From Rhodoferax sp. OV413 (GTDB taxonomy: Bacteria > Pseudomonadota > Gammaproteobacteria > Pseudomonadales > Pseudohongiellaceae): a DNA stretch of 43,569 bases. The notes below the pieces were generated by a model that did not search any database, was not told the DNA's origin, and worked only from the letters and a program-made list of their open reading frames with translations. Positions 34 to 12,296 of the stretch are shown piece after piece. The DNA is taken from assembly GCA_943330915.2 (NCBI GenBank), contig CALQJO020000024.1:1-43569 (forward strand), read 5' to 3'. Numbering within the stretch: position 1 is the stretch's first letter; each line of letters opens with the position of its first letter. The translations under genes and the position numbers were made by a program.

Positions 34-1179
34 ATGACTCAAGCCAACAACATGCAATCACTGCAGACAGAATTGCGCAGCATTTGTGTCCTGGGATTGC
101 TGATGCTGCTGGGCATATCCTTGTTTGCCACTCTGTTCACACCGTTTGACCGCAGTTTGCCATGGTTACTGGCCAGTTCGGTGTTGTGGCTGCTGGTCTA
201 TCTGCTGACCCGTCCGCGGCTGCACCTGAATCGGACCGACGCCTCCGACCCCCTGTTTGAGGGGCTGGGCTGGGCTAATCGTATGACGCTTGCACGCGGA
301 TGGCTGATTGCCGCTTGTGGCGGCTGTCTGGCCATTCCTGCGATTCTTGAGCACACCGCCATTGTTGTGTGGATCGCAGCCGCCGCCTATTCAATTGCCG
401 CTATCTTTGATCGGGTGGATGGTTTCATCGCCCGCAAAACCGGACGCACCACTCAGTTGGGGTCTGAACTCGACACCTTGTTTGACGCACTGGGACTGAT
501 GGTTGCGCCGGTACTGGCCTTGCTGCTGGGTAAAATTCACTGGTCATACCTGTTGGTCAGTGTTGCCTATTACCTGTTTGTCGCTGGCATAAAAATTCGC
601 CAACGTAAACAACTGCCGGTCTACCCCTTGGCGCCCAGTCAACTGCGCAGAACACTGGCCGGATTCCAGATGGGTTATGTCGCGGTAGTGTTATGGCCGC
701 CATTTGACGCCGGTGTCACGGTGTTGGCAGGCGTTGGTTTTATGTTGCCTTTGCTGATCGGATTTCTGGTGGACTGGTGCGTTGTCAGCGGTCGCATCAA
801 TCCGTTCGAACCAAGACAGGGCGCAGTGTTTGAGCGCTTGAAGCAAACCACGAATGCCATTCTAATGCCCGCTGCGCGGGTGATACTGACAGCCAGTATC
901 TACTTGGCGTGGAGTGCAGATCCGTTCACCAGAACTTTGGATATTCCCGCCGTTTTGTTGGTACTTGTCAGTGTGCTGATGATGGCCGCTGGTGTTGCCG
1001 GGCGCGCTGGCGCGATGCTGTTGCTTATGGTGCTGGCGTGGAATACCCCGATCGCGGTCTCTGACCCTCTGTTTAATCTGAGCCTGTTTATGAGTATTGC
1101 CATTCTGCTGCTGGGCTGCGGACGCTACAGTCTCTGGCAACACGATGACCATTGGGTCAATCGCCAGGATGGTGCCTGA
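34..1179 (+). CDS. CDP-alcohol phosphatidyltransferase family membrane protein
   Basis: This is an integral membrane enzyme of the family that swaps CMP on a CDP-alcohol (such as CDP-diacylglycerol) for another alcohol, making phospholipids or related phosphodiesters. The family signature DG-x2-AR-x8-G-x3-D-x3-D is complete: D126, D129-G130, A133-R134, G143, D147 and D151. At 381 residues it is about twice the length of PgsA-type enzymes. The extra length is an N-terminal membrane region of about 80 residues and a long hydrophobic C-terminal part. The ATG at 34 is used; an in-frame ATG at 52 is an alternative with no better ribosome site. The stop overlaps the ATG of the next gene by one base, so the two are translationally coupled. 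Substrate is unknown. It lies beside the pterin/pyrimidine-type cluster and could supply its lipid or phosphodiester step, which is inference. Confidence 0.88.
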   Translation: MTQANNMQSLQTELRSICVLGLLMLLGISLFATLFTPFDRSLPWLLASSVLWLLVYLLTRPRLHLNRTDASDPLFEGLGWANRMTLARGWLIAACGGCLAIPAILEHTAIVVWIAAAAYSIAAIFDRVDGFIARKTGRTTQLGSELDTLFDALGLMVAPVLALLLGKIHWSYLLVSVAYYLFVAGIKIRQRKQLPVYPLAPSQLRRTLAGFQMGYVAVVLWPPFDAGVTVLAGVGFMLPLLIGFLVDWCVVSGRINPFEPRQGAVFERLKQTTNAILMPAARVILTASIYLAWSADPFTRTLDIPAVLLVLVSVLMMAAGVAGRAGAMLLLMVLAWNTPIAVSDPLFNLSLFMSIAILLLGCGRYSLWQHDDHWVNRQDGA

Positions 1180-2168
1180 TGCGGCAGTTCCGGCAAGCAG
1201 GCACCGTGCTGTGGCTGGTGGCACTGGCCCTGGTCAGCTGGACGCTGAGTCAGATGCCACTGGCAGATATTGGTTCAACACTGAGTCAGCTGACGTGGAC
1301 AGAATGGAGCGCCTGGGCTGTTGTGAACATACTGGTTGTTCTGGCAGGCAACACGCGCTGGTTTTTGCTGACACGCATGGTGCGGGGGGCAATAGGATTT
1401 TTCCATCTGCTCATCATTCGTCAGGCAGGACAGACCGTCAGTTTTATCACGCCCGGGCCGCAGTTTGGTGGCGAACCCCTGCAGATTTATTGGCTCTACA
1501 AACGAACAGGCATGGCAATACACAGCGCAATTCTATGCTTAGGCCTGGATCGATTTTTTGAACTGTGGATTAATTTCCTGATGCTGATTCTGGGCATCAG
1601 TCTGCTGATGTCGATGCCAGTGTCGGGCATTGGTGAGCAGGCAGACACTAACTGGCAGCAGATCCTGCTGTTGATGGCCGGCGCGTTGCTGTTGCTGTCA
1701 GGACTGGCGATGGTTGTCATCCGTCAGCCAGCACTGTTGTCCAGCAGACTGGAAAAGCTCAGTGCGCGTTGGCTCAGCAGCCCCCGACTGCAAGCGATAG
1801 ACGATCATTGGCAATCCCTCGGCAGCGATCTGCGTTTAGCCATCAGTACACAGAAGCCGGTGTTATCGATGGCCTTACTGCTATCGCTGGGCGGCTGGGT
1901 ACTGATCATTGTGGAGATGTGGCTGGTGCTGAGCTTTTTTGACATTGCGCTGTCCAGCAGCGGCCTGGTGCTGATACTGGTCGCCATGAGACTGGCACTG
2001 CTGCTGCCTCTGCCGGGCGGTATCGGCACCCTAGAGGCTTCGGTGTTCTGGTCGTTTCAGGCACTGGGGCTGCCAGCCGGCGCCGCATTGGGCGTGATCG
2101 CCATTATGCGTCTGCGCGACGTACTGGTGCTGATCGCCGGGGTGCTGTGTGTGCGGGCGTTGCGTTAA
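1179..2168 (+). CDS. Flippase-like membrane protein (LPG synthase TM region family)
   Basis: A polytopic inner-membrane protein of 329 residues, resembling the N-terminal transmembrane domain of lysylphosphatidylglycerol synthase/MprF (the UPF0104 type). Such stand-alone domains are thought to move lipids or lipid-linked intermediates across the membrane. The family features seen are GGEPLQIYWLYKRTG in the first third and LPLPGGIGTLEASVFW near the C-terminus, with about seven or eight hydrophobic segments. There is no soluble aminoacyl-transferase domain. The ATG at 1179 is chosen because it overlaps the upstream stop as TGATG; the longer reading frame would need a TTG at 1152. Its stop shares a TTAA with the stop of the convergent gene downstream. 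Pairing with a CDP-alcohol phosphatidyltransferase suggests make-and-flip handling of one lipid. Confidence 0.82.
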   Translation: MRQFRQAGTVLWLVALALVSWTLSQMPLADIGSTLSQLTWTEWSAWAVVNILVVLAGNTRWFLLTRMVRGAIGFFHLLIIRQAGQTVSFITPGPQFGGEPLQIYWLYKRTGMAIHSAILCLGLDRFFELWINFLMLILGISLLMSMPVSGIGEQADTNWQQILLLMAGALLLLSGLAMVVIRQPALLSSRLEKLSARWLSSPRLQAIDDHWQSLGSDLRLAISTQKPVLSMALLLSLGGWVLIIVEMWLVLSFFDIALSSSGLVLILVAMRLALLLPLPGGIGTLEASVFWSFQALGLPAGAALGVIAIMRLRDVLVLIAGVLCVRALR

Positions 2169-2542
2169 AACGCTTTACGGTAGGCCGCCCAGCAGCTTGC
2201 GTTTTCCCACAGTTTGACCTGCAGCACGCCGTGTCCCGGGGGATGAATGGTCGCCAGCATGCGCTCGCAGATGATGCGACTGAAATGCTCGATACTCGGA
2301 TTCAGGCCTGCGAACTCTGCTTTGTCATTCAGCAGACTGTCACGAAAGTCATTCACAATCGCTGTCAGCGCCGACTCAATATCAACGATATCAACCAGGT
2401 AACCGTGTTTATCAAGCTCTGCTGCCTCAATACTGATTTCAGCCACATACTGGTGTGCATGTGGAAAATTTTCACTGCCCCAGTCTCCACCGATCAGAAA
2501 ATGTCTGGCAATAAACTCTTTGGTAACGGCAACGCTGTACAT
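2165..2542 (-). CDS. 6-pyruvoyl-tetrahydropterin synthase/QueD-family protein, divergent active site
   Basis: A 125-residue T-fold protein of the PTPS/QueD family, whose members act on 7,8-dihydroneopterin triphosphate or similar pterins. The three zinc-binding histidines are present (H14 in FIARHFL; H28 and H30 in PHAH), and the pterin-anchoring glutamate fits E113 in LWENASCW. The catalytic cysteine normally four residues before the first histidine of the HxH pair is replaced by E24 (ENFPH). The usual LDH of the LDHxxLN motif reads F66-R67-D68, so the Asp-His dyad is lost. The ATG at 2542 follows AAGGA at good spacing; upstream codons in frame lack this. It is the last gene of the minus-strand ribA operon. 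It probably binds a pterin- or pyrimidine-like molecule, but ordinary PTPS or QueD activity is doubtful. Confidence 0.85.
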   Translation of the reverse strand: MYSVAVTKEFIARHFLIGGDWGSENFPHAHQYVAEISIEAAELDKHGYLVDIVDIESALTAIVNDFRDSLLNDKAEFAGLNPSIEHFSRIICERMLATIHPPGHGVLQVKLWENASCWAAYRKAF

Positions 2543-2617
2543 AACAATATCCTTGGTTAAAATCCTGGAAAAACTTGCCAAACATGATGGCGGCTGACGT
2601 TCGGCCATGCAACCGGT

Positions 2618-3679
2618 TTATTGATACAAAAACACTGCCTGTAAAACATCACCCGGGTTGGTGTCCAGCAAGTGATAGAGCGCGGCAGCATCCGTTATTG
2701 GTTGTTGATGGCTGATCAGCTTTTCAGGCTGCAATCGCCGGATCATATCCCACGCGGTATCAAAGCGACGGGGTTTATCCCATCGCCCACGCAGCGAAGA
2801 TGCCAGCGTGCTGACCTGACTGGTGGAAATCTGTAATCGGTTGCGATGTGCATCTCCGCCCAGCGCAATCACCGCAGATTTGTTGCCATACCAGCTGCCA
2901 ATAACGATCCGGCTTTCAAACCCACTGAGGTCAACCGCCAGATTCAAGGCCTGCGGTACACCGCTGACTTCATAAATCAGGTCAGCGCCGTCTTGTTGCC
3001 CAAGGCGGTGCCTGGCAAGATCAGACTGCGTCAGCGGATCAAAACTGGCATGCGCACCTACCGCAAGCGAGAACGCTCGCCGTTGGCTGAAGCCATCCAG
3101 TGTCAGCAGATTTTTAAGGGGAAACTGCGCCAGAATACCTGCCAACAACAGCCCCACAATGCCTTGACCAAGCACCACGACCTGCTCACCGATGACAGGC
3201 GCGCCATCGTGTGCCAGGTTGACGGCGGTTTCCATGTTAGCTAAAAAAACCGCCGCCATGTCGTCAATATCATCAGGAACAACAATAAGTTGATCAGCAT
3301 TTGTCAGGTAATGACTTACATGCGGTTGAAAGGAAAACACGCGCTTCCCCAGCCATGCAGGCTCCACTTCGGACCCGATCGCTATGACCTTCCCCACACA
3401 GGCGTACCCATATTGCAAGGGATAACCCAGCGTTGATTGCATGGACTCAAAACTCGCATCTAAGGCCATTTGCTCCGGCATCTGCCCGCGGTAAACAAGC
3501 ATTTCTGTGCCGGCGCTGATGGCTGAGCAACGAGTCTGTATCAGTAGCTGTGCAGGCCCCGGATTCCCAAGCGAAGCATGGCGAAGTTCAACACAGCGAG
3601 GCGCGGTGAACCATAATTGTTCGGCTGTGGTGACAGCCGTATCGAGAGATTGCAGGGTCGGCTTATCGGAACGAGTCAT
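2618..3679 (-). CDS. Zinc-alcohol-dehydrogenase-family (MDR, BchC-like) oxidoreductase
   Basis: A 353-residue medium-chain dehydrogenase/reductase. The N-terminal GroES-like half contains RCSAISAGTE (residues 50-59), the form seen in bacteriochlorophyllide dehydrogenase (BchC)-like members. The nucleotide-binding half has the GxGxxG motif GQGIVG (161-166). The GHE zinc motif of typical alcohol dehydrogenases is replaced by YGYACVG, and no four-cysteine structural zinc loop is visible, so the metal site is incomplete or absent. The ATG at 3679 overlaps the TGA of the upstream reductase by four bases (ATGA), giving tight coupling. It would oxidise or reduce an alcohol/ketone side chain using NAD(P)(H). 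From its neighbours the substrate is likely a product of ribA and the RibD-type reductase, which is inference. Confidence 0.85.
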   Translation of the reverse strand: MTRSDKPTLQSLDTAVTTAEQLWFTAPRCVELRHASLGNPGPAQLLIQTRCSAISAGTEMLVYRGQMPEQMALDASFESMQSTLGYPLQYGYACVGKVIAIGSEVEPAWLGKRVFSFQPHVSHYLTNADQLIVVPDDIDDMAAVFLANMETAVNLAHDGAPVIGEQVVVLGQGIVGLLLAGILAQFPLKNLLTLDGFSQRRAFSLAVGAHASFDPLTQSDLARHRLGQQDGADLIYEVSGVPQALNLAVDLSGFESRIVIGSWYGNKSAVIALGGDAHRNRLQISTSQVSTLASSLRGRWDKPRRFDTAWDMIRRLQPEKLISHQQPITDAAALYHLLDTNPGDVLQAVFLYQ

Positions 3680-4383
3680 GATGATGGATACCGCACGTCG
3701 CCCCACATAATCAAATCCTTACCCAGTTTTTCGGTGAACATAGGTGAAATCTCAGGCAACTCAGTTAGTGATGCAAATCCCAGATCGGTCACAGCCTTAT
3801 ACCCACCCACCAGTCGTGGGGCAACGGTGAGCACGATCGCATCCACGAGTTTAAGTCTGAGAAAAGAGCTGATAACTCCAGCGCCACCTTCGACCATCAA
3901 GCTGTGGATACCGCGGTGTTTGAGAGCAAGAAGCGCTTCATGCAGGCAGACGCGCCCCTGGCTATCGCCAGCAAGACGAATCACGTCCAGCTGCATCGTA
4001 TCAGGTAGCTCTGCTTCGGAGCTGGTGATAACCCAGCAGCGCTTGGCGGGTAGATGGCAAAGCTTTGCGGGAGCAGGCATGCGCAGTTGCGCGTCCAACA
4101 CAATAGGTTGCGGATCGCGACCTTCGCACAGTCGCACATTCAGTCGGGGATCATCAGAAATCACAGTACCAATGCCAACCAGGATACCATCGTGACGGCT
4201 GCGTAATTGATGCGTGAGCAGCGCTGACTGCTCACCACTCAGGGCCATAGACGCGCCAGAATACAAGGTAATGCTGCCGTCCCAGCTTTGAGCATAACTC
4301 AGGGTCACAAACGGCCGGTCAGTCCGGGCGAACTGCGACAAGCGCTCGCCCAACCATTGCTCAATTTGCTGATTGGGCGTCAT
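3676..4383 (-). CDS. RibD C-terminal-domain (dihydrofolate reductase-like) reductase, stand-alone
   Basis: A 235-residue protein of the RibD_C family, the NADPH-dependent reductases that turn the ribosyl side chain of the riboflavin pyrimidine intermediate into ribityl. Matching blocks are VTLSYAQSWDG (residues 26-36), GIGTVISDDPRL (70-81) and VEGGAGVISSFL (164-175). The N-terminal cytidine-deaminase-like domain of bifunctional RibD is missing, and no separate deaminase lies nearby. Such deaminase-free reductases act directly on the GTP cyclohydrolase II product in the archaeal and fungal riboflavin order, and similar domains occur in natural-product clusters. The ATG at 4383 has AGGGA about six bases upstream and lies inside the 3' end of ribA (23-base overlap). 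An in-frame codon at 4398 is a weaker choice. Confidence 0.88.
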   Translation of the reverse strand: MTPNQQIEQWLGERLSQFARTDRPFVTLSYAQSWDGSITLYSGASMALSGEQSALLTHQLRSRHDGILVGIGTVISDDPRLNVRLCEGRDPQPIVLDAQLRMPAPAKLCHLPAKRCWVITSSEAELPDTMQLDVIRLAGDSQGRVCLHEALLALKHRGIHSLMVEGGAGVISSFLRLKLVDAIVLTVAPRLVGGYKAVTDLGFASLTELPEISPMFTEKLGKDLIMWGDVRYPSS

Positions 4384-5068
4384 GCACGTCCCTGACAAAA
4401 ACCGCCGGTACCGGTGTTAGCACTGCCGGCCTGAAAGACTGCATAGGCAGAAGGTGATCCATGCGTCTTGCTTTGGTTAACAGATACGCTTCGTTGTCAG
4501 CGTTTACCGGCGCCTCCAGGGAAACACGTGAATTAACTTTCACACCTTCCGCCTTCAACGCACTGATTTTAAGAGGATTATTCGTCATTACCCGCACCGA
4601 TCTGATCTGCAGGTCATCGAGTATGCAGGCCGCTAGAGAGTATTCACGGGCATCTGCCTTGTGTCCAAGCATCAGGTTGGCATCCACCGTGTCGTATCCC
4701 TGATCCTGCAGATTATAGGCGTCAAGCTTTGCCATGAGGCCAATGCCCCGGCCTTCCTGACGCAGATACACAATCACTCCGCGCCCTTCACTGGCAACCA
4801 TGGCCATGGAGCGCTGTAACTGTTCCCCGCAATCACAGCGGCGTGAACCCATCACATCGCCGGTGAAGCACTCGGAATGCACACGAATCAGCACATTTTC
4901 ACAATTGCTGACATCACCCATGCAGAACGCCAGGTGTTCTTTGTTGTCCAGGGAATTAGTGAAGTAGACCAACTGAAAGTCGCCGTGCTCAGTAGGGATA
5001 CGTCCGGAGGTCATACGGGTGACCGATGGCGTAACTGACGAATTCTTTACAGCGCTGATGATTGACAT
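4361..5068 (-). CDS. ribA: GTP cyclohydrolase II
   Basis: This enzyme converts GTP to 2,5-diamino-6-ribosylamino-4-pyrimidinone 5'-phosphate, formate and pyrophosphate, the entry step of riboflavin synthesis. The zinc cysteines are C67, C78 and C80 (ECFTGD...RRCDCGEQ). The GTP/catalytic block YLRQEGRGIGL (101-111), the conserved tyrosine Y118 and TNNPLK are intact, so it should be active. It has 235 residues against about 196 in E. coli. The extra length is an N-terminal arm and a C-terminal tail of about 25 residues with no recognised domain. It is the first gene of the minus-strand operon, and its 3' end overlaps the RibD-type reductase. No FMN riboswitch is visible upstream. The deaminase-less reductase and PTPS homologue next to it suggest a dedicated copy for a side pathway; whether another ribA exists cannot be seen here. 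Confidence 0.93.
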   Translation of the reverse strand: MSIISAVKNSSVTPSVTRMTSGRIPTEHGDFQLVYFTNSLDNKEHLAFCMGDVSNCENVLIRVHSECFTGDVMGSRRCDCGEQLQRSMAMVASEGRGVIVYLRQEGRGIGLMAKLDAYNLQDQGYDTVDANLMLGHKADAREYSLAACILDDLQIRSVRVMTNNPLKISALKAEGVKVNSRVSLEAPVNADNEAYLLTKARRMDHLLPMQSFRPAVLTPVPAVFVRDVHDAQSAN

Positions 5069-5268
5069 AGTGCGGCATGTTACGGTGCGGCCTTTTTTAA
5101 GGCAAGCTACCGCCTCCAGTAGTGGTTTTTATAGGTTACAAAGCCTAAATGCTGCTTTGGCGCTTATACGTTCAGACCGGTTAAACTGGTTTTCCAGCCA
5201 ACAGCATTTGATTGATTGTCATATCAGCATTTGGAACATATGCTGCTGATTTTGCCCCGGGGACTCGT
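5069..5268. promoter_or_regulatory. Divergent intergenic region between ribA and glycosyltransferase
   Basis: Two hundred bases separate the divergent starts. The plus-strand side has a fair sigma70-type promoter (listed separately). For ribA a TATAAA-like element is readable on the minus strand around 5129-5134, without a convincing -35 box. No riboflavin-type riboswitch core and no strong palindromic operator were found. Confidence 0.4.
5216..5244 (+). promoter_or_regulatory. Candidate sigma70 promoter for the glycosyltransferase-methyltransferase pair
   Basis: TTGTCA (5216-5221) and TATGCT (5239-5244) are separated by 17 bases. Transcription would begin near 5251, upstream of the proposed TTG start at 5269. 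This argues against the longer reading frame that opens at 5212. Confidence 0.45.
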
Positions 5269-6321
5269 TTGAACACAGATCTGTATTTTGTTATCCCTGG
5301 CAAGCTGAGCACGATGACCGGTGGTTATGAATATGACCGACAGTTAATCGCCGGCCTGCTGGGCATGGGTATTCGTGTCCATCACGTGGAACTTTCAGAC
5401 AGCTTCCCGGTGCCCGACAGTGCCGCCATGGCTGACGCTGCCGCCATGATGGCCGCAATACCCGATGGCGCAGTTGTGTTAGCAGATGGTCTTGCGTGGG
5501 GGACCATGGATACGATTGCACAGACCGAACACCAGAGGCTGAGGATAATTGCCCTGTGCCATCATCCTCTGGCGTTTGAGACAGGGTTGTCTACCGCTCA
5601 ACAGGCTGCTCTCTTCCGCTCGGAAAAAAAATCGCTTGATCTGTCAACCGCCATTGTAGTGACCAGTCAGGCAACGGCCGATCTGCTTATCAAAGCCTAT
5701 AGCATTCCGCCAGCCAAGCTGACGGTTGCGCTGCCAGGCACGCAGCAACAAAGTTTTGCAGCCTGCGAGGGCGATCCACCGGTATTGTTGACGGTGGCAA
5801 CGCTCACTCAACGCAAAGCACATGACGTATTGATTGACGCGCTATCGCGCATTACCGATCTGCCCTGGACTGCGCGTTTTGTCGGGGGCCAGCAGTTTGA
5901 CCCTGCCTGGGCCGCACATCTGCATAAGATCACTGACGCACTTGGACTTGGTGAGCGTATCAGCTTTGTTGGCAGCGTGGCGGATCTGACACCGGAGTAC
6001 ACAAATGCTGATCTGTTTGTGTTGCCGTCGCGTTTTGAAGGCTACGGCATGGTGTTTGCTGAAGCGCTTTCGTTTGGTTTGCCCATCGTAGCTGCCCGCA
6101 CCGGCGCAGTGCCCGATGTGGTTCCCGAGTCTGCAGGCGTGCTTGTTAACGCGGATGATGCAACGGCGCTGGCGTTCGCGCTTCATCGGTTACTCAACGA
6201 TAAACAACGGTACCAACAACTGCGGCTGGGTGCGCAGACTGCAGCAGCCGCGCTGCCGTCGTGGCAGGACACCGCAAATATTATGAATAAACTGCTGATG
6301 ACACTGTCAACGAGGCCCTGA
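5269..6321 (+). CDS. Glycosyltransferase family 4 (GT-B fold)
   Basis: A 350-residue cytosolic GT-B glycosyltransferase that should move a sugar from a nucleotide-sugar donor. The N-terminal domain has the GT4-like acceptor loop (GKLSTMTGGYEYDRQL). The donor half has TLTQRKAHDVLIDAL (residues about 178-192) and the E-x7-E motif with E257 and E265 in FEGYGMVFAEAL. The start is taken as the TTG at 5269, preceded by GGGGA at five bases and lying just downstream of a candidate promoter; the frame also runs open to 5212. The methyltransferase begins two bases after its stop. It is divergent from ribA and probably decorates the product of that operon. Donor and acceptor are not predictable. Confidence 0.87.
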   Translation: MNTDLYFVIPGKLSTMTGGYEYDRQLIAGLLGMGIRVHHVELSDSFPVPDSAAMADAAAMMAAIPDGAVVLADGLAWGTMDTIAQTEHQRLRIIALCHHPLAFETGLSTAQQAALFRSEKKSLDLSTAIVVTSQATADLLIKAYSIPPAKLTVALPGTQQQSFAACEGDPPVLLTVATLTQRKAHDVLIDALSRITDLPWTARFVGGQQFDPAWAAHLHKITDALGLGERISFVGSVADLTPEYTNADLFVLPSRFEGYGMVFAEALSFGLPIVAARTGAVPDVVPESAGVLVNADDATALAFALHRLLNDKQRYQQLRLGAQTAAAALPSWQDTANIMNKLLMTLSTRP

Positions 6322-6323
6322 GT

Positions 6324-7130
6324 ATGAGTGGATTTTCAATTAACTGGCTGGATATGCGCGAACCCGCTGACATGGCAGCGCGCGACAAAGCACTGGCTGC
6401 TCAGGTCGTTGAATACCTGCACACAGTTGCTGACCAATCACCGTTGATTGTTGATCTTGGCTCTGGGACTGGATCAACGCTTCGCGCGTTGACCTCTCTC
6501 GGAGCCCAACAATGTGTGTGGAGGCTGATCGATCATGACCCCGCACTGCTGAATGAGGCATTACGGCGTCATGGACAGCACGAAATCATTGAAGACTACG
6601 AAGCTGACCTGCTCGATATTGACGCACTGCCGCTGGGTGCGGCAACGCTGCTGTCTGCGTCAGCCCTGTTTGATCTGGCCTCAGCAGACCTTGTTGATCA
6701 CCTGGTTGAAAAACTGGCGCATCAGAACACCGCGTTTTACGCCGCGCTCAATTACGACGGGCGCACCCAATGGACACCAGTTCATCCGTTTGATCAACAA
6801 GTACTGCAGGCGTTTAATGAAGATCAGCGCCGCGACAAAGGCTTGGGGCCGGCCTTAGGCCCGCAAAGTTCTGCTCATCTGCAACACGCCCTGGAACGCG
6901 CCGGATACAACGTACAGATTGCCGACAGCGCATGGGATCTTGGCCCGGCACAGCACGAATTGGTTGCGGATCTCGTCCGTGGAATCAAGGCCGCCGTTAC
7001 AGCAGGTTACGGTTTGGACACGAAGGCTCTGGAGGACTGGGAAGCGTTTCGTCTGGCAAACAGCGTCAACGGACGCTGTATTATCGGGCATCTGGATGTG
7101 CTGGCATTCCCGGTGAAAACGTTTCGATAA
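6324..7130 (+). CDS. Class I SAM-dependent methyltransferase
   Basis: A 268-residue Rossmann-fold methyltransferase. Motif I is VDLGSGTGSTLRAL (residues 43-56), and an acidic residue near the end of the next strand (WRLIDHDPALL) would bind the SAM ribose. The C-terminal part has no recognised substrate domain. The start ATG lies two bases after the glycosyltransferase stop, so the two form one transcript. The 3' end overlaps the convergent sulfatase-fold gene by 50 bases. In context it most likely methylates the same small molecule or lipid that the glycosyltransferase modifies. The substrate is unknown. Confidence 0.82.
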   Translation: MSGFSINWLDMREPADMAARDKALAAQVVEYLHTVADQSPLIVDLGSGTGSTLRALTSLGAQQCVWRLIDHDPALLNEALRRHGQHEIIEDYEADLLDIDALPLGAATLLSASALFDLASADLVDHLVEKLAHQNTAFYAALNYDGRTQWTPVHPFDQQVLQAFNEDQRRDKGLGPALGPQSSAHLQHALERAGYNVQIADSAWDLGPAQHELVADLVRGIKAAVTAGYGLDTKALEDWEAFRLANSVNGRCIIGHLDVLAFPVKTFR

Positions 7131-8733
7131 AGCGATCACGGACAGTATCCATCCGCCATACCGGTGCATCCTGTGCCGGCAACATTCCCGGTGTCCACTG
7201 CCAATCTGCAGTGGCCGCCATGACTGCGGGGTCCGCACTGATGATGTGCACCATCACATCCGGTGCCGAAGCGCCTTCGGCGATTAACGGCATAGGCTGA
7301 TGGTCGCCCATCACCAGAACAACCAGATTGCTATCGCCATAGCGCTCGATGTAGGACACCAAAGTGTCCAGTACATACACCACCGAGTCACGATACTGGC
7401 TTTTTAACAAATCTATATCCTGCCAGACCTGATCGGTGCGAGGCCCACGTTGGGCTTGCTCATTAAATTCGGTGCCGTCAACGATGCTGTCCCAGTCAAT
7501 GACCTCGGGAATCGGTGTCCACGGTGCGTGTGACGAAATCAGCGCAAATTCCGCCATTACCGGTTTGCGCGCTGCAGGATCACGCTCGCGCTGCTGAAAT
7601 CGCGCCAGCGTAAACTGATCCGGCATGGTGACGTAATTAAACGGCAATCCCTGATACTCCAGCGCGGCGGCATCATAAATCTGATCGTATCCAAAATACT
7701 GGCCTTCCGGCCATGCCAGCGTAATGGCCGGCATGACACCCACCGTGCGCCAGCCAGCGCGCTGAAACAACCGGATCAGTGACGGACGTTGACTCATCAT
7801 CAACGCGTCATAACGCAACTGACTGTCTATCCACAATCCAGACATCGCCGTTCCATGTGCCAGCCAGCTCAGCCCGCCAATAGTTGAAGAAGCCAAAAAC
7901 GCGCTTGACGAGGCATAACCCTGAGCGCTGAGTGAACTGCCGGCGCGCTCCAGTGCGGGACGAATGACGTCGGCATACCGTGGGCTGTCGAGCAACACGC
8001 GCCCGTAAGACTCCAGAAACACGACCAGTACATCCTTACCCTGCAGCGCTCCAAACAACTGTTCACCGGGAACATTGTTATAAACATCCTCGTTGACGAT
8101 CTCCCTGAACGCTCGCAATTCAACAAGGCTGTTCACAGCATTAAAAGTGTGCGAGACCAGTTGGTCGTGAAAGTAGCGCGAGGTCACGGTTGAACCTGAC
8201 GCCGTCATTGCGCTCCAAATCAACAGCGCTATCAGCAACGCCCCGCCTGTCCTGCGCGCCGGAAATCGCCATAACAACGACCTGATACGCCTCAACGACA
8301 ACCAGCACGCTGCGATCACCAATCCAACGGTCAACAGCATCAGAATTGACACTAATACGGTAGCGGGGTAACCAATACTTGACCCCAGCAAATGAAACCC
8401 ATCACTTAACAGGTAAGCATCCAGCACAGGATTAAAGGCACGCGCAAAAATCATAAACGCTGCCATGTCCGCCAGCCTGAAAATCAAACCAGCAGCAATC
8501 AACACTGTTGAAAAACCCATTATCCAGACAGACGCCCGCCCACGGATCAGCAGCAACAAGGGGAACACCACTGCTTCCAGCGGAAAGTAAAATATGTACC
8601 ACCAGTGCAGCCAATCAAGGCGGTTAGGCACCACAAAAATAGTCAGCAGGTACCAGACCGCCAGCACAGTTAACACAACTCTGACGGATCGGTTTTGCAA
8701 ACTGTCCTGATACAAACGAATGATTGCTGACAT
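7081..8733 (-). CDS. Membrane-anchored sulfatase/phosphoglycerol-transferase-fold protein
   Basis: A 550-residue protein of the alkaline phosphatase superfamily, built like LTA synthase or phosphoethanolamine transferases. About five transmembrane segments fill the first 190 residues, followed by an extracytoplasmic sulfatase domain. Metal and nucleophile positions fit E241 (VVFLESYG), T284 (ASSTIGGLSW), SHAPWTP and VMGDHQPMP. The nucleophile is Thr with no Cys/Ser sulfatase signature, so phosphotransferase activity on a lipid or glycan is more likely than sulfate hydrolysis. The ATG at 8733 follows an AAGAAG-type ribosome site; the frame also extends to 8823 with poor support. Its promoter region holds a Fur-like box. 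It converges on the methyltransferase with a 50-base overlap and may act outside the membrane on the cluster's product. Confidence 0.83.
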   Translation of the reverse strand: MSAIIRLYQDSLQNRSVRVVLTVLAVWYLLTIFVVPNRLDWLHWWYIFYFPLEAVVFPLLLLIRGRASVWIMGFSTVLIAAGLIFRLADMAAFMIFARAFNPVLDAYLLSDGFHLLGSSIGYPATVLVSILMLLTVGLVIAACWLSLRRIRSLLWRFPARRTGGALLIALLIWSAMTASGSTVTSRYFHDQLVSHTFNAVNSLVELRAFREIVNEDVYNNVPGEQLFGALQGKDVLVVFLESYGRVLLDSPRYADVIRPALERAGSSLSAQGYASSSAFLASSTIGGLSWLAHGTAMSGLWIDSQLRYDALMMSQRPSLIRLFQRAGWRTVGVMPAITLAWPEGQYFGYDQIYDAAALEYQGLPFNYVTMPDQFTLARFQQRERDPAARKPVMAEFALISSHAPWTPIPEVIDWDSIVDGTEFNEQAQRGPRTDQVWQDIDLLKSQYRDSVVYVLDTLVSYIERYGDSNLVVLVMGDHQPMPLIAEGASAPDVMVHIISADPAVMAATADWQWTPGMLPAQDAPVWRMDTVRDRFIETFSPGMPAHPDAR

Positions 8734-8789
8734 GCGGGGCTTCTTTAAGACGATGTTTAGGCAGGGAACTTCCCTGATACGATTTGGGG

Positions 8790-8816
8790 AGTATAACGGA
8801 TGAGAATGATTGTCAG
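8790..8816 (-). promoter_or_regulatory. Candidate promoter for the sulfatase-fold gene
   Basis: On the minus strand a TATACT -10 (8790-8795) is preceded by CTGACA (8811-8816) with a short 15-base spacer. The Fur-like box lies between and over these elements. Confidence 0.35.
8801..8815. promoter_or_regulatory. Fur-box-like operator
   Basis: TGAGAATGATTGTCA matches the 7-1-7 Fur consensus TGATAAT-n-ATTATCA at 12 of 14 informative positions. It overlaps the -35 box of the rightward promoter and the spacer of the leftward one. Bound Fur-Fe(II) would be placed to repress both genes when iron is plentiful. This is sequence matching only. Confidence 0.5.
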
Positions 8817-8839
8817 ATAACAATTACTGTGAGTACACT
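8810..8839 (+). promoter_or_regulatory. Candidate promoter for the Tat-exported aldo/keto reductase
   Basis: TTGTCA (8810-8815) and TACACT (8834-8839) are spaced 18 bases apart, about 45 bases upstream of the start codon. The -35 box is inside the Fur-like site. Confidence 0.4.
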
Positions 8840-11300: not shown

Positions 11301-12059
11301 CTAACGGACGGGAAAATCAAAATACTGATCAGGGAAAGGTTCATCATTCAGTGTGTAATGCCACCACTCTTGTTCGTAGTTGGAAAATCCTGCCACTTCC
11401 ATCAAATCGCGCAGCAAATGACGACGCTGCAGAACTTCAGCGCCCACTGCGATGTCATCGGTATGTGAGCGCAGGTCGAAGCAATCATAACCAGTACCCA
11501 TATCAATACTGTTATCGGGGAAACGCTCAGACTGCGACGCGCGACAATCGAACTGCCTTGACAAAGGATCTGCCACAGGCACAGTTGTGCCAAGTGGCAC
11601 TAACGTCAGATCCACTGTGCTACCGCGCGAGTGACCTGATTGACTGGCGATATACCCGCGGGAAAACAGTTCGTCTTTTGGCACTTCAGGGTAATAACTG
11701 GTACGCATCACGTCGTCCAGCGGATCCGCAGCCCATTGCACAAAATCGTCCACTGCGCGTTGCGGACGAAAGCAGTCGTAAACCTTAAGCGAATATCCAA
11801 GCGTTGTAACCGCTTCCTGCACCAAAACTAACGCCTCAGCGGCTGGGTCAGTCAATATACATTCACCGGCTTCATAACCAGCAACAGGCCGGCCGAGAAA
11901 GTTATTTGTGCCAAGGTAGCGCATATCCTGTTGGATGCTGCTGTCGAGTTGGGACAAGTAACTAAACCCTTCGGGCAAAACGTTTGGTGAGTTATTGTCG
12001 CTGCAGGCCACCACAGAACCCACCACACAAACGAAAAATAAAGTGCGCAATTTTCTCAA
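11301..12059 (-). CDS. VanX/DdpX-like D-alanyl-D-alanine dipeptidase lipoprotein
   Basis: An M15D zinc dipeptidase that should cleave D-Ala-D-Ala or related cell-wall dipeptides. Metal and catalytic residues are visible: SGHSRGSTVD (H143, D150), EWWHY (E231, H234) and the arginine R98 in CFRPQR. A short signal ending VGSVVAC gives a lipobox, so the mature enzyme would be anchored at C19 in the periplasm. The start is uncertain. The TTG at 12059 gives a normal lipoprotein signal; a TTG at 12050 has AGGGA at nine bases; the frame also runs to a GTG at 12149 with a less signal-like N-terminus. No resistance genes (vanA/H) are nearby, so a role in peptidoglycan turnover or nutrition is more likely than glycopeptide resistance. 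Confidence 0.85.
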   Translation of the reverse strand: MRKLRTLFFVCVVGSVVACSDNNSPNVLPEGFSYLSQLDSSIQQDMRYLGTNNFLGRPVAGYEAGECILTDPAAEALVLVQEAVTTLGYSLKVYDCFRPQRAVDDFVQWAADPLDDVMRTSYYPEVPKDELFSRGYIASQSGHSRGSTVDLTLVPLGTTVPVADPLSRQFDCRASQSERFPDNSIDMGTGYDCFDLRSHTDDIAVGAEVLQRRHLLRDLMEVAGFSNYEQEWWHYTLNDEPFPDQYFDFPVR

Positions 12060-12296
12060 TCCCTGTTCTCTGGTTGCTACGATTTTTTGTCTGACTGCAC
12101 TTGATCGGGCGCCAACAATGCCCGCCGGCAACACGATTGTAAAGTGCACTGAGGCAAACTCGCTCCTAAAACGTTAGATTGATTGCACCAGTCTCGTCAA
12201 ACCGCCATTCCACCCCTATTCCTCCCTTTTCCTGTGCTGGTCAATCAATTGAAAGGTGTATTTGAAGGGGTCTTGCAGACAACTGGAGTGTTGCAA

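What the first reader, a model, noticed from the sequence alone, without database searches (positions are those of the whole stretch)
34..8733. Possible undescribed pathway: ribA, deaminase-less RibD, MDR enzyme, PTPS homologue, GT4, methyltransferase, with lipid genes
Four minus-strand genes (ribA, RibD_C, MDR, PTPS-like) have overlapping or close ends and face a GT4-methyltransferase pair across a 200-base divergent promoter region. A CDP-alcohol phosphatidyltransferase/flippase pair and a membrane sulfatase-fold transferase flank them. This is not a riboflavin operon: ribB, ribE, ribH and the deaminase are absent. It looks like toxoflavin-style diversion of the GTP cyclohydrolase II product, but with pterin-family and glycosyl/methyl tailoring and possible attachment to a phospholipid headgroup. 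The enzyme families are seen; the shared pathway and lipid link are inference.
Basis: partly seen in the sequence, partly recalled or inferred. Interest (0 to 1): 0.78.

Follow-up and report, generated by a model that had tools for sequence, protein, structure and literature searches.

The report
Undescribed GTP-derived pteridine-lipid gene cluster
These genes form a cluster kept together in many bacteria and some salt-loving archaea that appears to turn GTP, through vitamin-B2-type enzymes but not into vitamin B2, into a sugar- and probably lipid-decorated pterin-like compound that I could not find described.

Summary
In detail: CDP-alcohol phosphatidyltransferase, flippase-like protein, PTPS homologue, MDR, RibD_C, RibA, GT4, methyltransferase and a sulfatase-fold membrane protein. 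The set recurs in Gammaproteobacteria, Chloroflexota, other phyla and haloarchaeal plasmids; 20 control regions of 20 kb hold none of the families.

It is not riboflavin synthesis. The genome has separate rib genes. The cluster reductase lacks the lysine that selects the deaminated substrate (0 Lys in 87 cluster proteins; the genome's own RibD has it), so it should use the un-deaminated GTP cyclohydrolase II product. Haloarchaeal clusters (8) lack RibD_C, and in 3 GTP cyclohydrolase IIa stands in RibA's place. Of 11 Chloroflexota genomes without lumazine synthase, riboflavin synthase or FO synthase, 10 keep a separate RibD_C-RibA pair.

The PTPS homologue keeps the pterin-anchor glutamate but not the PTPS catalytic triad. 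Lipid linkage is supported by linked CDP-alcohol transferases (in Chloroflexota alternating with an acyltransferase), flippases and YceI genes.

Best reading: a pathway from GTP to a glycosylated, methylated, probably membrane-anchored 2-aminopteridine. Steps 1-2 are well supported by sequence; ring closure, product and function are inferred.

The parts
34..1179 (+). CDP-alcohol phosphatidyltransferase, with an intact DxxDGxxAR...GxxxDxxxD motif (motif recalled)
   Evidence: motif found in 63 of 68 cluster homologues
1152..2168 (+). LPG-synthase-TM / flippase-like membrane protein
2165..2608 (-). PTPS (T-fold) homologue; probable start at 2542; His36/His50/His52 and pterin-anchor Glu135 kept, catalytic Cys/Asp/His replaced (roles recalled)
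2618..3706 (-). BchC-like MDR dehydrogenase, probably NAD-dependent and without catalytic zinc; start uncertain (3706 or later)
3676..4398 (-). Stand-alone RibD_C reductase without deaminase domain; Ser at the position of BsRibG Lys151 / ScRIB7 Thr35
4361..5068 (-). GTP cyclohydrolase II (RibA) with three cysteines and Tyr kept
5069..5211 (.). Divergent intergenic region between ribA and the GT4 gene (GT4 start uncertain)
   Evidence: coordinates; no promoter scan was run
5212..6321 (+). GT4 glycosyltransferase (best NCBIfam model MshA, below cut-off)
6324..7130 (+). Class I SAM methyltransferase (weak family match)
   Evidence: distances follow those of GT4 (r 0.95)
7081..8823 (-). Membrane sulfatase/alkaline-phosphatase-fold protein (accessory; within 10 kb in 3 of 20 unnamed and 23 of 80 named loci)

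Best explanation
A dedicated biosynthetic cluster. (1) RibA opens GTP to 2,5-diamino-6-ribosylamino-4(3H)-pyrimidinone 5'-phosphate (DAROPP). (2) The deaminase-less RibD_C reduces it, without deamination, to the 2,5-diamino-6-ribitylamino compound (DARIPP). Archaea need no cluster copy because their riboflavin route makes DARIPP anyway. (3) The NAD-type MDR dehydrogenase and the PTPS-fold protein, which keeps the pterin-binding glutamate but not the PTPS catalytic triad, turn the diaminopyrimidine into a 2-amino-4-oxo-pteridine; one route is oxidation of a ribityl hydroxyl followed by closure with the 5-amino group. (4) GT4 and the methyltransferase decorate it. (5) The CDP-alcohol transferase (or, in part of Chloroflexota, an acyltransferase) attaches a lipid, the flippase-like protein moves it across the membrane, and in some lineages a YceI lipocalin carries it. 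Steps 1-2 are well supported by sequence; 3-5 are inferred, and the exact ring and the biological role are unknown.
For: Conserved set: within 10 kb of the MDR in 80 named loci PTPS 76, GT4 73, RIBDC 66, RIBA 57, MT 55, FLIP 54, CDPOH 46; in 20 unnamed loci of the window's class PTPS 18, GT4 17, RIBDC 17, MT 15, CDPOH 15, second flippase family 11, RIBA 8; controls 0 of 20. Distances correlate: MDR-PTPS 0.93, MDR-RIBDC 0.92, MDR-RIBA 0.89, MDR-CDPOH 0.86, GT4-MT 0.95; none of 200 permutations reached any of them. Un-deaminated substrate: 0 Lys of 87 cluster reductases at the BsRibG Lys151 position, Lys in the genome's own RibD; ScRIB7 T35K switches preference between the two substrates (PMC3631187, passages). 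RibD_C in 87 of 105 bacterial loci but in 0 of 8 haloarchaeal loci of the main MDR group; GTP cyclohydrolase IIa annotated directly before the MDR in 3 of these 8. Of 11 Chloroflexota genomes whose cluster has no RibD_C match, 10 have a stand-alone RibD_C beside RibA elsewhere, all 10 with Asn at the key position, and 0 of 11 have lumazine synthase, riboflavin synthase, or CofH over cut-off. Pterin-anchor Glu135 in 95 of 100 PTPS rows, the other 5 gaps. Lipid link: CDPOH and acyltransferase never together in 22 Chloroflexota loci with over 4 kb upstream (7 CDPOH only, 12 acyltransferase only, 3 neither; Fisher p 0.0007, relatedness ignored); of 20 YceI matches, 17 lie within about 150 bp of, or overlap, a same-strand cluster gene.
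Against: No product or activity is known. GTP cyclohydrolase I is present in the window's genome and in 11 of 11 Chloroflexota genomes, so a plain dihydroneopterin product would be redundant; the ring made must differ or the pool must be separate. GT4 and MT follow the core less closely (MDR-GT4 r 0.52), and three of the 73 named GT4 matches score under 100 bits. Zinc ligands vary: His50 in 86 and His52 in 81 of 100 rows; the 12 rows with Asn50 include all 11 Chloroflexota genomes tested for riboflavin genes, so that test speaks for a sub-group with an altered PTPS site. One of the 11 (G370) has neither RibA nor a strong RibD_C. CDPOH is seen in 46 and FLIP in 54 of 80 named loci (31 and 35 of the 45 with long flanks), so lipid linkage may not be universal. 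The profiles were built from cluster members, and the YceI, acyltransferase and second-flippase families were picked because they recur there.
Confidence: 0.55

Rival explanations
1. Redox detour to 7,8-dihydroneopterin 3'-phosphate: RibD_C reduces the ribosylamine, the MDR re-oxidises C2' to the Amadori ketone, the ring closes, and the PTPS homologue acts on the resulting dihydropterin; a GTP-cyclohydrolase-I-free route feeding a tailored pterin.
For: Explains why a reductase and an NAD-type dehydrogenase sit side by side and why a pterin-binding T-fold protein follows. Acidic residue at the NAD position of the MDR in 113 of 113 rows.
Against: GTP cyclohydrolase I is present in the window genome and in 11 of 11 tested Chloroflexota genomes, so the same compound could be had without the cluster.
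Confidence: 0.25
2. An 8-ribityl-pterin type compound (a pterin analogue of the lumazine/flavin series): the PTPS homologue or MDR helps condense DARIPP with a small carbonyl compound, and the ribityl phosphate end is the site of glycosyl or phosphatidyl attachment.
For: Explains why GTP cyclohydrolase II and a reductase are used, keeping the ribityl chain, although GTP cyclohydrolase I is present; a polyol phosphate suits a CDP-alcohol transferase and an MshA-like GT4 (inference).
Against: No direct evidence for the condensation or its partner; the cluster loci were not searched for lumazine-synthase-like genes.
Confidence: 0.25
3. Auxiliary riboflavin supply: extra ribA and ribD copies beside unrelated lipid and sugar genes.
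For: RibA keeps the residues of GTP cyclohydrolase II.
Against: Separate rib genes in the genome; reductase lacks the AROPP-selecting Lys; 10 of 11 Chloroflexota genomes without RibH and RibE keep the pair; neighbours conserved across phyla.
Confidence: 0.04
4. Toxoflavin/pseudoiodinine-like azapteridine natural product cluster.
For: Shares GTP cyclohydrolase II, a RibD-family enzyme and a methyltransferase.
Against: In pseudoiodinine the RibD-like protein is compared to the deaminase and WD-40, sulphatase-modifying and glyoxalase-superfamily genes belong to the cluster (PMC9911603, passages); here a PTPS homologue and an MDR are core and the window's RibD_C lacks a deaminase domain. No direct sequence comparison was made.
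Confidence: 0.04

Closest known systems
Riboflavin pathway, first two enzymes (RibA, RibD reductase domain; fungal/archaeal RIB7)
   Same: Same enzyme families; RibA residues kept; reductase resembles RIB7 and archaeal enzymes in lacking Lys
   Different: No deaminase domain on the window's RibD_C and no ribB, ribE or ribH among the window genes 34-8823; RibA and RibD_C occur in genomes without RibH and RibE
PTPS/QueD family; S. coelicolor SCO6650 (PDB 3d7j)
   Same: T-fold family; closest solved relative by sequence, E 6e-9; pterin-anchor Glu kept
   Different: PTPS catalytic Cys-Asp-His replaced; SCO6650 has the LHGAT form of the smaller sub-group that lacks one zinc ligand. Recalled, not read: SCO6650 was reported to lack zinc and PTPS activity
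Toxoflavin / pseudoiodinine clusters
   Same: Divert the GTP cyclohydrolase II product; RibD-family and methyltransferase genes
   Different: RibD-like protein compared to the deaminase; other partner genes; here PTPS, MDR, GT4 and lipid genes
BchC (chlorophyll-pathway MDR)
   Same: Best NCBIfam relative of the MDR
   Different: 78.8 bits against a cut-off of 291.25
YceI-cytochrome b561 (BcnA-LcoA) lipid peroxyl radical detoxification
   Same: YceI genes sit beside cluster genes in 17 of the 20 loci that have one; cytochrome b561 near the MDR in 5 loci
   Different: The abstract of the BcnA-LcoA paper does not mention pterins (PMC9113575); no YceI match within 10 kb of the MDR in the window

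Membership tests
Riboflavin biosynthesis | Genes serve RibH/RibE downstream steps | tested here: not met
   10 of 11 Chloroflexota genomes have the RibD_C-RibA pair but 0 of 11 RibH or RibE; the window genome has separate rib genes
Riboflavin biosynthesis | Bacterial reductase with Lys selecting the deaminated substrate | tested here: not met
   0 of 87 cluster reductases have Lys
GTP cyclohydrolase II | Three zinc Cys and the catalytic Tyr (roles recalled) | tested here: met
   Cys 66, 67, 67 of 67; Tyr 65 of 67
PTPS / QueD enzyme activity | Catalytic Cys, Asp, His (positions recalled) | tested here: not met
   Cys position Glu 80, Ala 18, gap 2 of 100; Asp and His positions read as Arg89 and Asp90 in the window by hand alignment to recalled motifs
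PTPS fold family | Pfam PTPS match and pterin-anchor Glu | tested here: met
   PF01242 88.1 bits, cut-off 22.4; Glu135 95 of 100, rest gaps
Folate-supply bypass of GTP cyclohydrolase I | GTP cyclohydrolase I absent | tested here: not met
   Present in the window genome and in 11 of 11 Chloroflexota genomes
F420 (FO) biosynthesis | FO synthase present | tested here: not met
   0 of 11 genomes over the CofH cut-off; one weak match of 22.7 bits. The window genome was not tested
Toxoflavin-type azapteridine | RibD deaminase and the other partner genes | tested here: inconclusive
   RibD_C in the window has no deaminase domain; partner genes were not searched for
Zinc-dependent MDR | Catalytic zinc cysteine (recalled) | tested here: not met
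   At the aligned place Ser53 is Ser in 112 of 113 rows, one gap
CDP-alcohol phosphotransferase | DxxDGxxAR...GxxxDxxxD motif (recalled) | tested here: met
   63 of 68; at least two of the five misses are short rows
Lipid-linked pterin | Lipid covalently attached to a pteridine | not testable with these tools
   Needs mass spectrometry

The most novel reading that the evidence does not exclude
The cluster makes a membrane-anchored, glycosylated, redox-active pteridine lipid, a new class of lipid cofactor or membrane antioxidant shared by bacteria and archaea, made from the GTP cyclohydrolase II product and handled in some lineages by a YceI lipocalin and cytochrome b561.
Probability: 0.33. Interest if true: 0.93.

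Novelty: new variant of a known kind. Interest (0 to 1): 0.77.

Why it matters
RibA and RibD reductase genes are usually read as riboflavin synthesis. Here they appear to belong, with a different first enzyme in some archaea, to a widespread second pathway, so vitamin B2 capability could be over-called; ten Chloroflexota genomes have the pair but neither lumazine nor riboflavin synthase. If the product is a lipid-bound pteridine, it would be a new class of membrane cofactor. It also offers a testable pathway for PTPS homologues of unknown role such as SCO6650 (PDB 3d7j).

Tried and rejected
Plain riboflavin reinforcement: rejected (separate rib genes, Lys position, riboflavin-negative genomes). 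Folate bypass: rejected because GTP cyclohydrolase I is present. F420 supply: rejected for the 11 Chloroflexota genomes. Deazapurine (queuosine-type) product: considered only; the entry enzyme is GTP cyclohydrolase II, not I, and no QueE/QueC search was made. PTPS-III-like activity (Glu in place of Cys): considered; the Asp-His pair also seems gone, so not claimed. Toxoflavin-like: see rivals.

Literature: ten searches in open-licence PMC listed no paper whose title or start of abstract describes this gene set; most listed papers were not opened. The phrases for lipid-linked or membrane-anchored pterin had no occurrence in the 20 papers listed of 250. One 2026 review of bacterial pterins had no hit for lipid, glycosyl, gene cluster or 6-pyruvoyl (PMC13259868, passages). 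SCO6655 is listed only as a riboflavin gene in PMC2853524 (passage). Subscription papers are mostly not held. Two guesses at identifiers for the SCO6650 structure paper were not held, so that paper is recalled only.

An archaeal genome-wide search was not possible. The first count of gene neighbours used a greedy caller that missed PTPS genes behind antisense frames; counts come instead.


Full report
OBSERVATION. RibA, RibD_C, MDR and PTPS run on the minus strand with overlaps or gaps under 10 bases; GT4 and MT run divergently; the CDP-alcohol transferase and flippase-like frames overlap each other and converge on PTPS; a sulfatase-fold membrane protein converges on MT. The genome (2.89 Mb, 96.7% complete) also holds ribH (C2:61600-62007), a ribD match in a 414-aa frame (C2:64035-64682; deaminase motifs in its first half seen by eye), two more GTP-cyclohydrolase-II matches (C2), another PTPS gene (C12) and GTP cyclohydrolase I (C11). 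So the cluster genes are extra copies.

CONSERVATION. With the MDR as query, 21 of 369 genomes of the class, the window's own included, have a match at E below 1e-30. They come from Gammaproteobacteria (Pseudohongiella, Cellvibrio, Methylomonas, Saccharospirillum and others), Chloroflexota, Verrucomicrobiota, Fidelibacterota and Myxococcota (labels). Thirty-nine plasmid records match, among them haloarchaea, Streptomyces, Methylosinus and Thiodictyon; I opened 14 of them. Maps show the same set in several orders. Within 10 kb of the MDR: named loci (80) PTPS 76, GT4 73 (three under 100 bits), RIBDC 66, RIBA 57, MT 55, FLIP 54, CDPOH 46; unnamed loci (20) PTPS 18, GT4 17, RIBDC 17, MT 15, CDPOH 15, FLIP2 11, RIBA 8, FLIP 0; bacterial plasmid loci (5) PTPS 5, MT 5, GT4 5 (one a weak distant match of 24 bits), RIBDC 4, RIBA 2, CDPOH 2. 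Many loci are cut by contig ends; among the 45 named loci with more than 6 kb on both sides PTPS 45, GT4 45, RIBDC 37, MT 36, RIBA 35, FLIP 35, CDPOH 31. The profiles were built from cluster members, and YceI, FLIP2, cytochrome b561 and the acyltransferase were chosen because they recur near the MDR.

COUPLED DESCENT. Pairwise protein distances correlate strongly within the core (MDR-PTPS 0.93, MDR-RIBDC 0.92, MDR-RIBA 0.89, MDR-CDPOH 0.86, MDR-FLIP 0.83), GT4 with MT 0.95, and less between GT4/MT and MDR, PTPS, RIBDC, RIBA (0.44-0.60); none of 200 permutations reached any of these values. Shared species history alone could give part of this. The MDR tree has two deep groups of 92 and 21 rows under midpoint rooting; eight haloarchaeal rows form one supported group within the larger.

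FIRST STEPS. Cluster RibA proteins keep the three cysteines (66, 67, 67 of 67) and the tyrosine (65 of 67) (roles recalled). Bacterial RibD reductases carry a lysine (BsRibG Lys151) that favours the deaminated AROPP; yeast RIB7 has Thr35 there and archaea have Asn; T35K switched RIB7 to AROPP (PMC3631187, passages). In the alignment (92 rows) I dropped L148 (the genome's own RibD), L149 and L153 (second copies of the window region), L150 (another RibD_C match of the genome) and L125 (gap): of the 87 left, 44 Ser, 9 Thr, 9 Ala, 9 Gln, 9 His, 7 Cys, 0 Lys. L060 is a near copy of the window and was kept. The own RibD row has Lys. So the cluster reductase should take un-deaminated DAROPP.

TWO TESTS OF THAT READING. 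Archaea make DARIPP in their normal riboflavin route (PMC3631187, passages), so archaeal clusters should not need a RibD_C. None of the 8 haloarchaeal loci of the main MDR group has it, against 87 of 105 bacterial loci; a ninth, distant MDR (L147) has no cluster at all, and L056 shows only GTP cyclohydrolase IIa and MDR. RibA is also absent from these loci, and in 3 of the 8 (L056, L143, L146; the last two of one genus) the record annotates GTP cyclohydrolase IIa directly before the MDR. Whether these hosts have their own reductase was not tested. Second, 11 Chloroflexota genomes whose cluster shows no RibD_C match: ten also without RibA there, and that of L128, which has RibA there. A twelfth such locus, L102, on a 6.4-kb contig, was not tested. 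Ten of the 11 have, elsewhere, a stand-alone RibD_C frame of 230-269 aa beside RibA, each with Asn at the key position, counted by spacing to the DG motif. None of the 11 has lumazine synthase or riboflavin synthase, and none CofH over cut-off, one having a weak match of 22.7 bits. One genome (G370) has neither RibA nor a strong RibD_C. GTP cyclohydrolase I is present in all 11. Completeness of these genomes is not told, but joint absence of two genes from all 11 is hard to explain by gaps. All 11 loci belong to the 12 PTPS rows with Asn instead of His50, so they are one sub-group of the family.

PTPS AND MDR. Over 100 PTPS rows: His36 98 (2 gaps), Glu46 80 (Ala 18, gap 2), His50 86 (Asn 12), His52 81 (Ala 17, Thr 1), Asp73 100, Glu107 97, Glu135 95 (5 gaps). 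By comparison with recalled QueD/PTPS motifs the catalytic Cys, Asp and His are replaced and the pterin anchor is kept. The nearest solved chain is SCO6650 (3d7j, E 6e-9), which shares the LHGAT form of the smaller group. The MDR has an acidic residue at the NAD position in 113 of 113 rows (Asp 94, Glu 19); at the zinc-cysteine place Ser53 is Ser in 112 of 113 (one gap); His118, Glu148 and Asp156 are invariant in 113.

LIPID LINK. CDPOH keeps its motif in 63 of 68 rows. In 22 Chloroflexota loci with more than 4 kb upstream, 7 have CDPOH only, 12 an acyltransferase only (one representative is PF01553), none both, 3 neither (Fisher p 0.0007, not corrected for relatedness). In the 13 of these with a flippase match, the CDPOH (7) or acyltransferase (6) frame lies directly upstream of it; in the other six acyltransferase loci no flippase was matched, and in L120 the acyltransferase is on the other strand. 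YceI (one representative is PF04264) was found 20 times in cluster loci; 17 lie within about 150 bases of, or overlap, a same-strand cluster gene (MT, RibA, RibD_C, CDPOH or FLIP2) and 3 do not. YceI/BcnA with cytochrome b561 protects envelope lipids from peroxyl radicals in Burkholderia (PMC9113575, abstract). That the cluster product is such an antioxidant is speculation.

VERDICT. A conserved pathway, apparently undescribed as far as the ten searches go, starting at the GTP cyclohydrolase II product without deamination and probably giving a tailored and often lipid-linked 2-aminopteridine. Shown by sequence: gene set, conservation, residue signatures, independence from riboflavin. Inferred: each reaction after DARIPP, the lipid bond, the function.

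Noticed in passing
L175-L184 (ten Chloroflexota genomes): A RibD_C-RibA gene pair in genomes without lumazine or riboflavin synthase matches; such genes could be misread as riboflavin genes.
   Followed up: partly
L050, L051, L053, L042: YceI-family stop-to-stop frame overlaps the CDP-alcohol transferase frame by 12-76 bases on the same strand, suggesting close coupling.
   Followed up: partly
L057, L081, L095, L111, L114: Cytochrome b561 gene near the cluster; in L057 it lies between the methyltransferase and RibD_C genes.
   Followed up: partly
L102, L112, L113, L117, L119, L121, L122, L128, L129, L132, L133, L139: A Chloroflexota sub-group has Asn in place of the zinc-type His50 of the PTPS homologue and no RibD_C match in the cluster, perhaps a variant of the pathway.
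   Followed up: partly
L067, L108: Contigs titled Klebsiella pneumoniae group with environmental Gammaproteobacteria in the MDR tree; probably misnamed metagenome bins.
   Followed up: no
L140 (Streptomyces fungicidicus plasmid p1) and L055 (Haloarcula marismortui pNG700): Creatininase-family gene near the cluster, beside ribA in L140; this family includes an archaeal formamide hydrolase of the riboflavin route (recalled).
   Followed up: no
L058, L141: PfkB/ribokinase-type kinase beside the cluster in two Rhodobacterales plasmids, and in L058 also an inositol-monophosphatase-family gene.
   Followed up: no
L112, L113, L121, L139: Shared frame of about 228 aa next to the MDR in four Chloroflexota loci, not identified (family 32).
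   Followed up: no
window 11301-12149 (-): By eye resembles a D-Ala-D-Ala dipeptidase (VanX-like); not tested with a tool.
   Followed up: no
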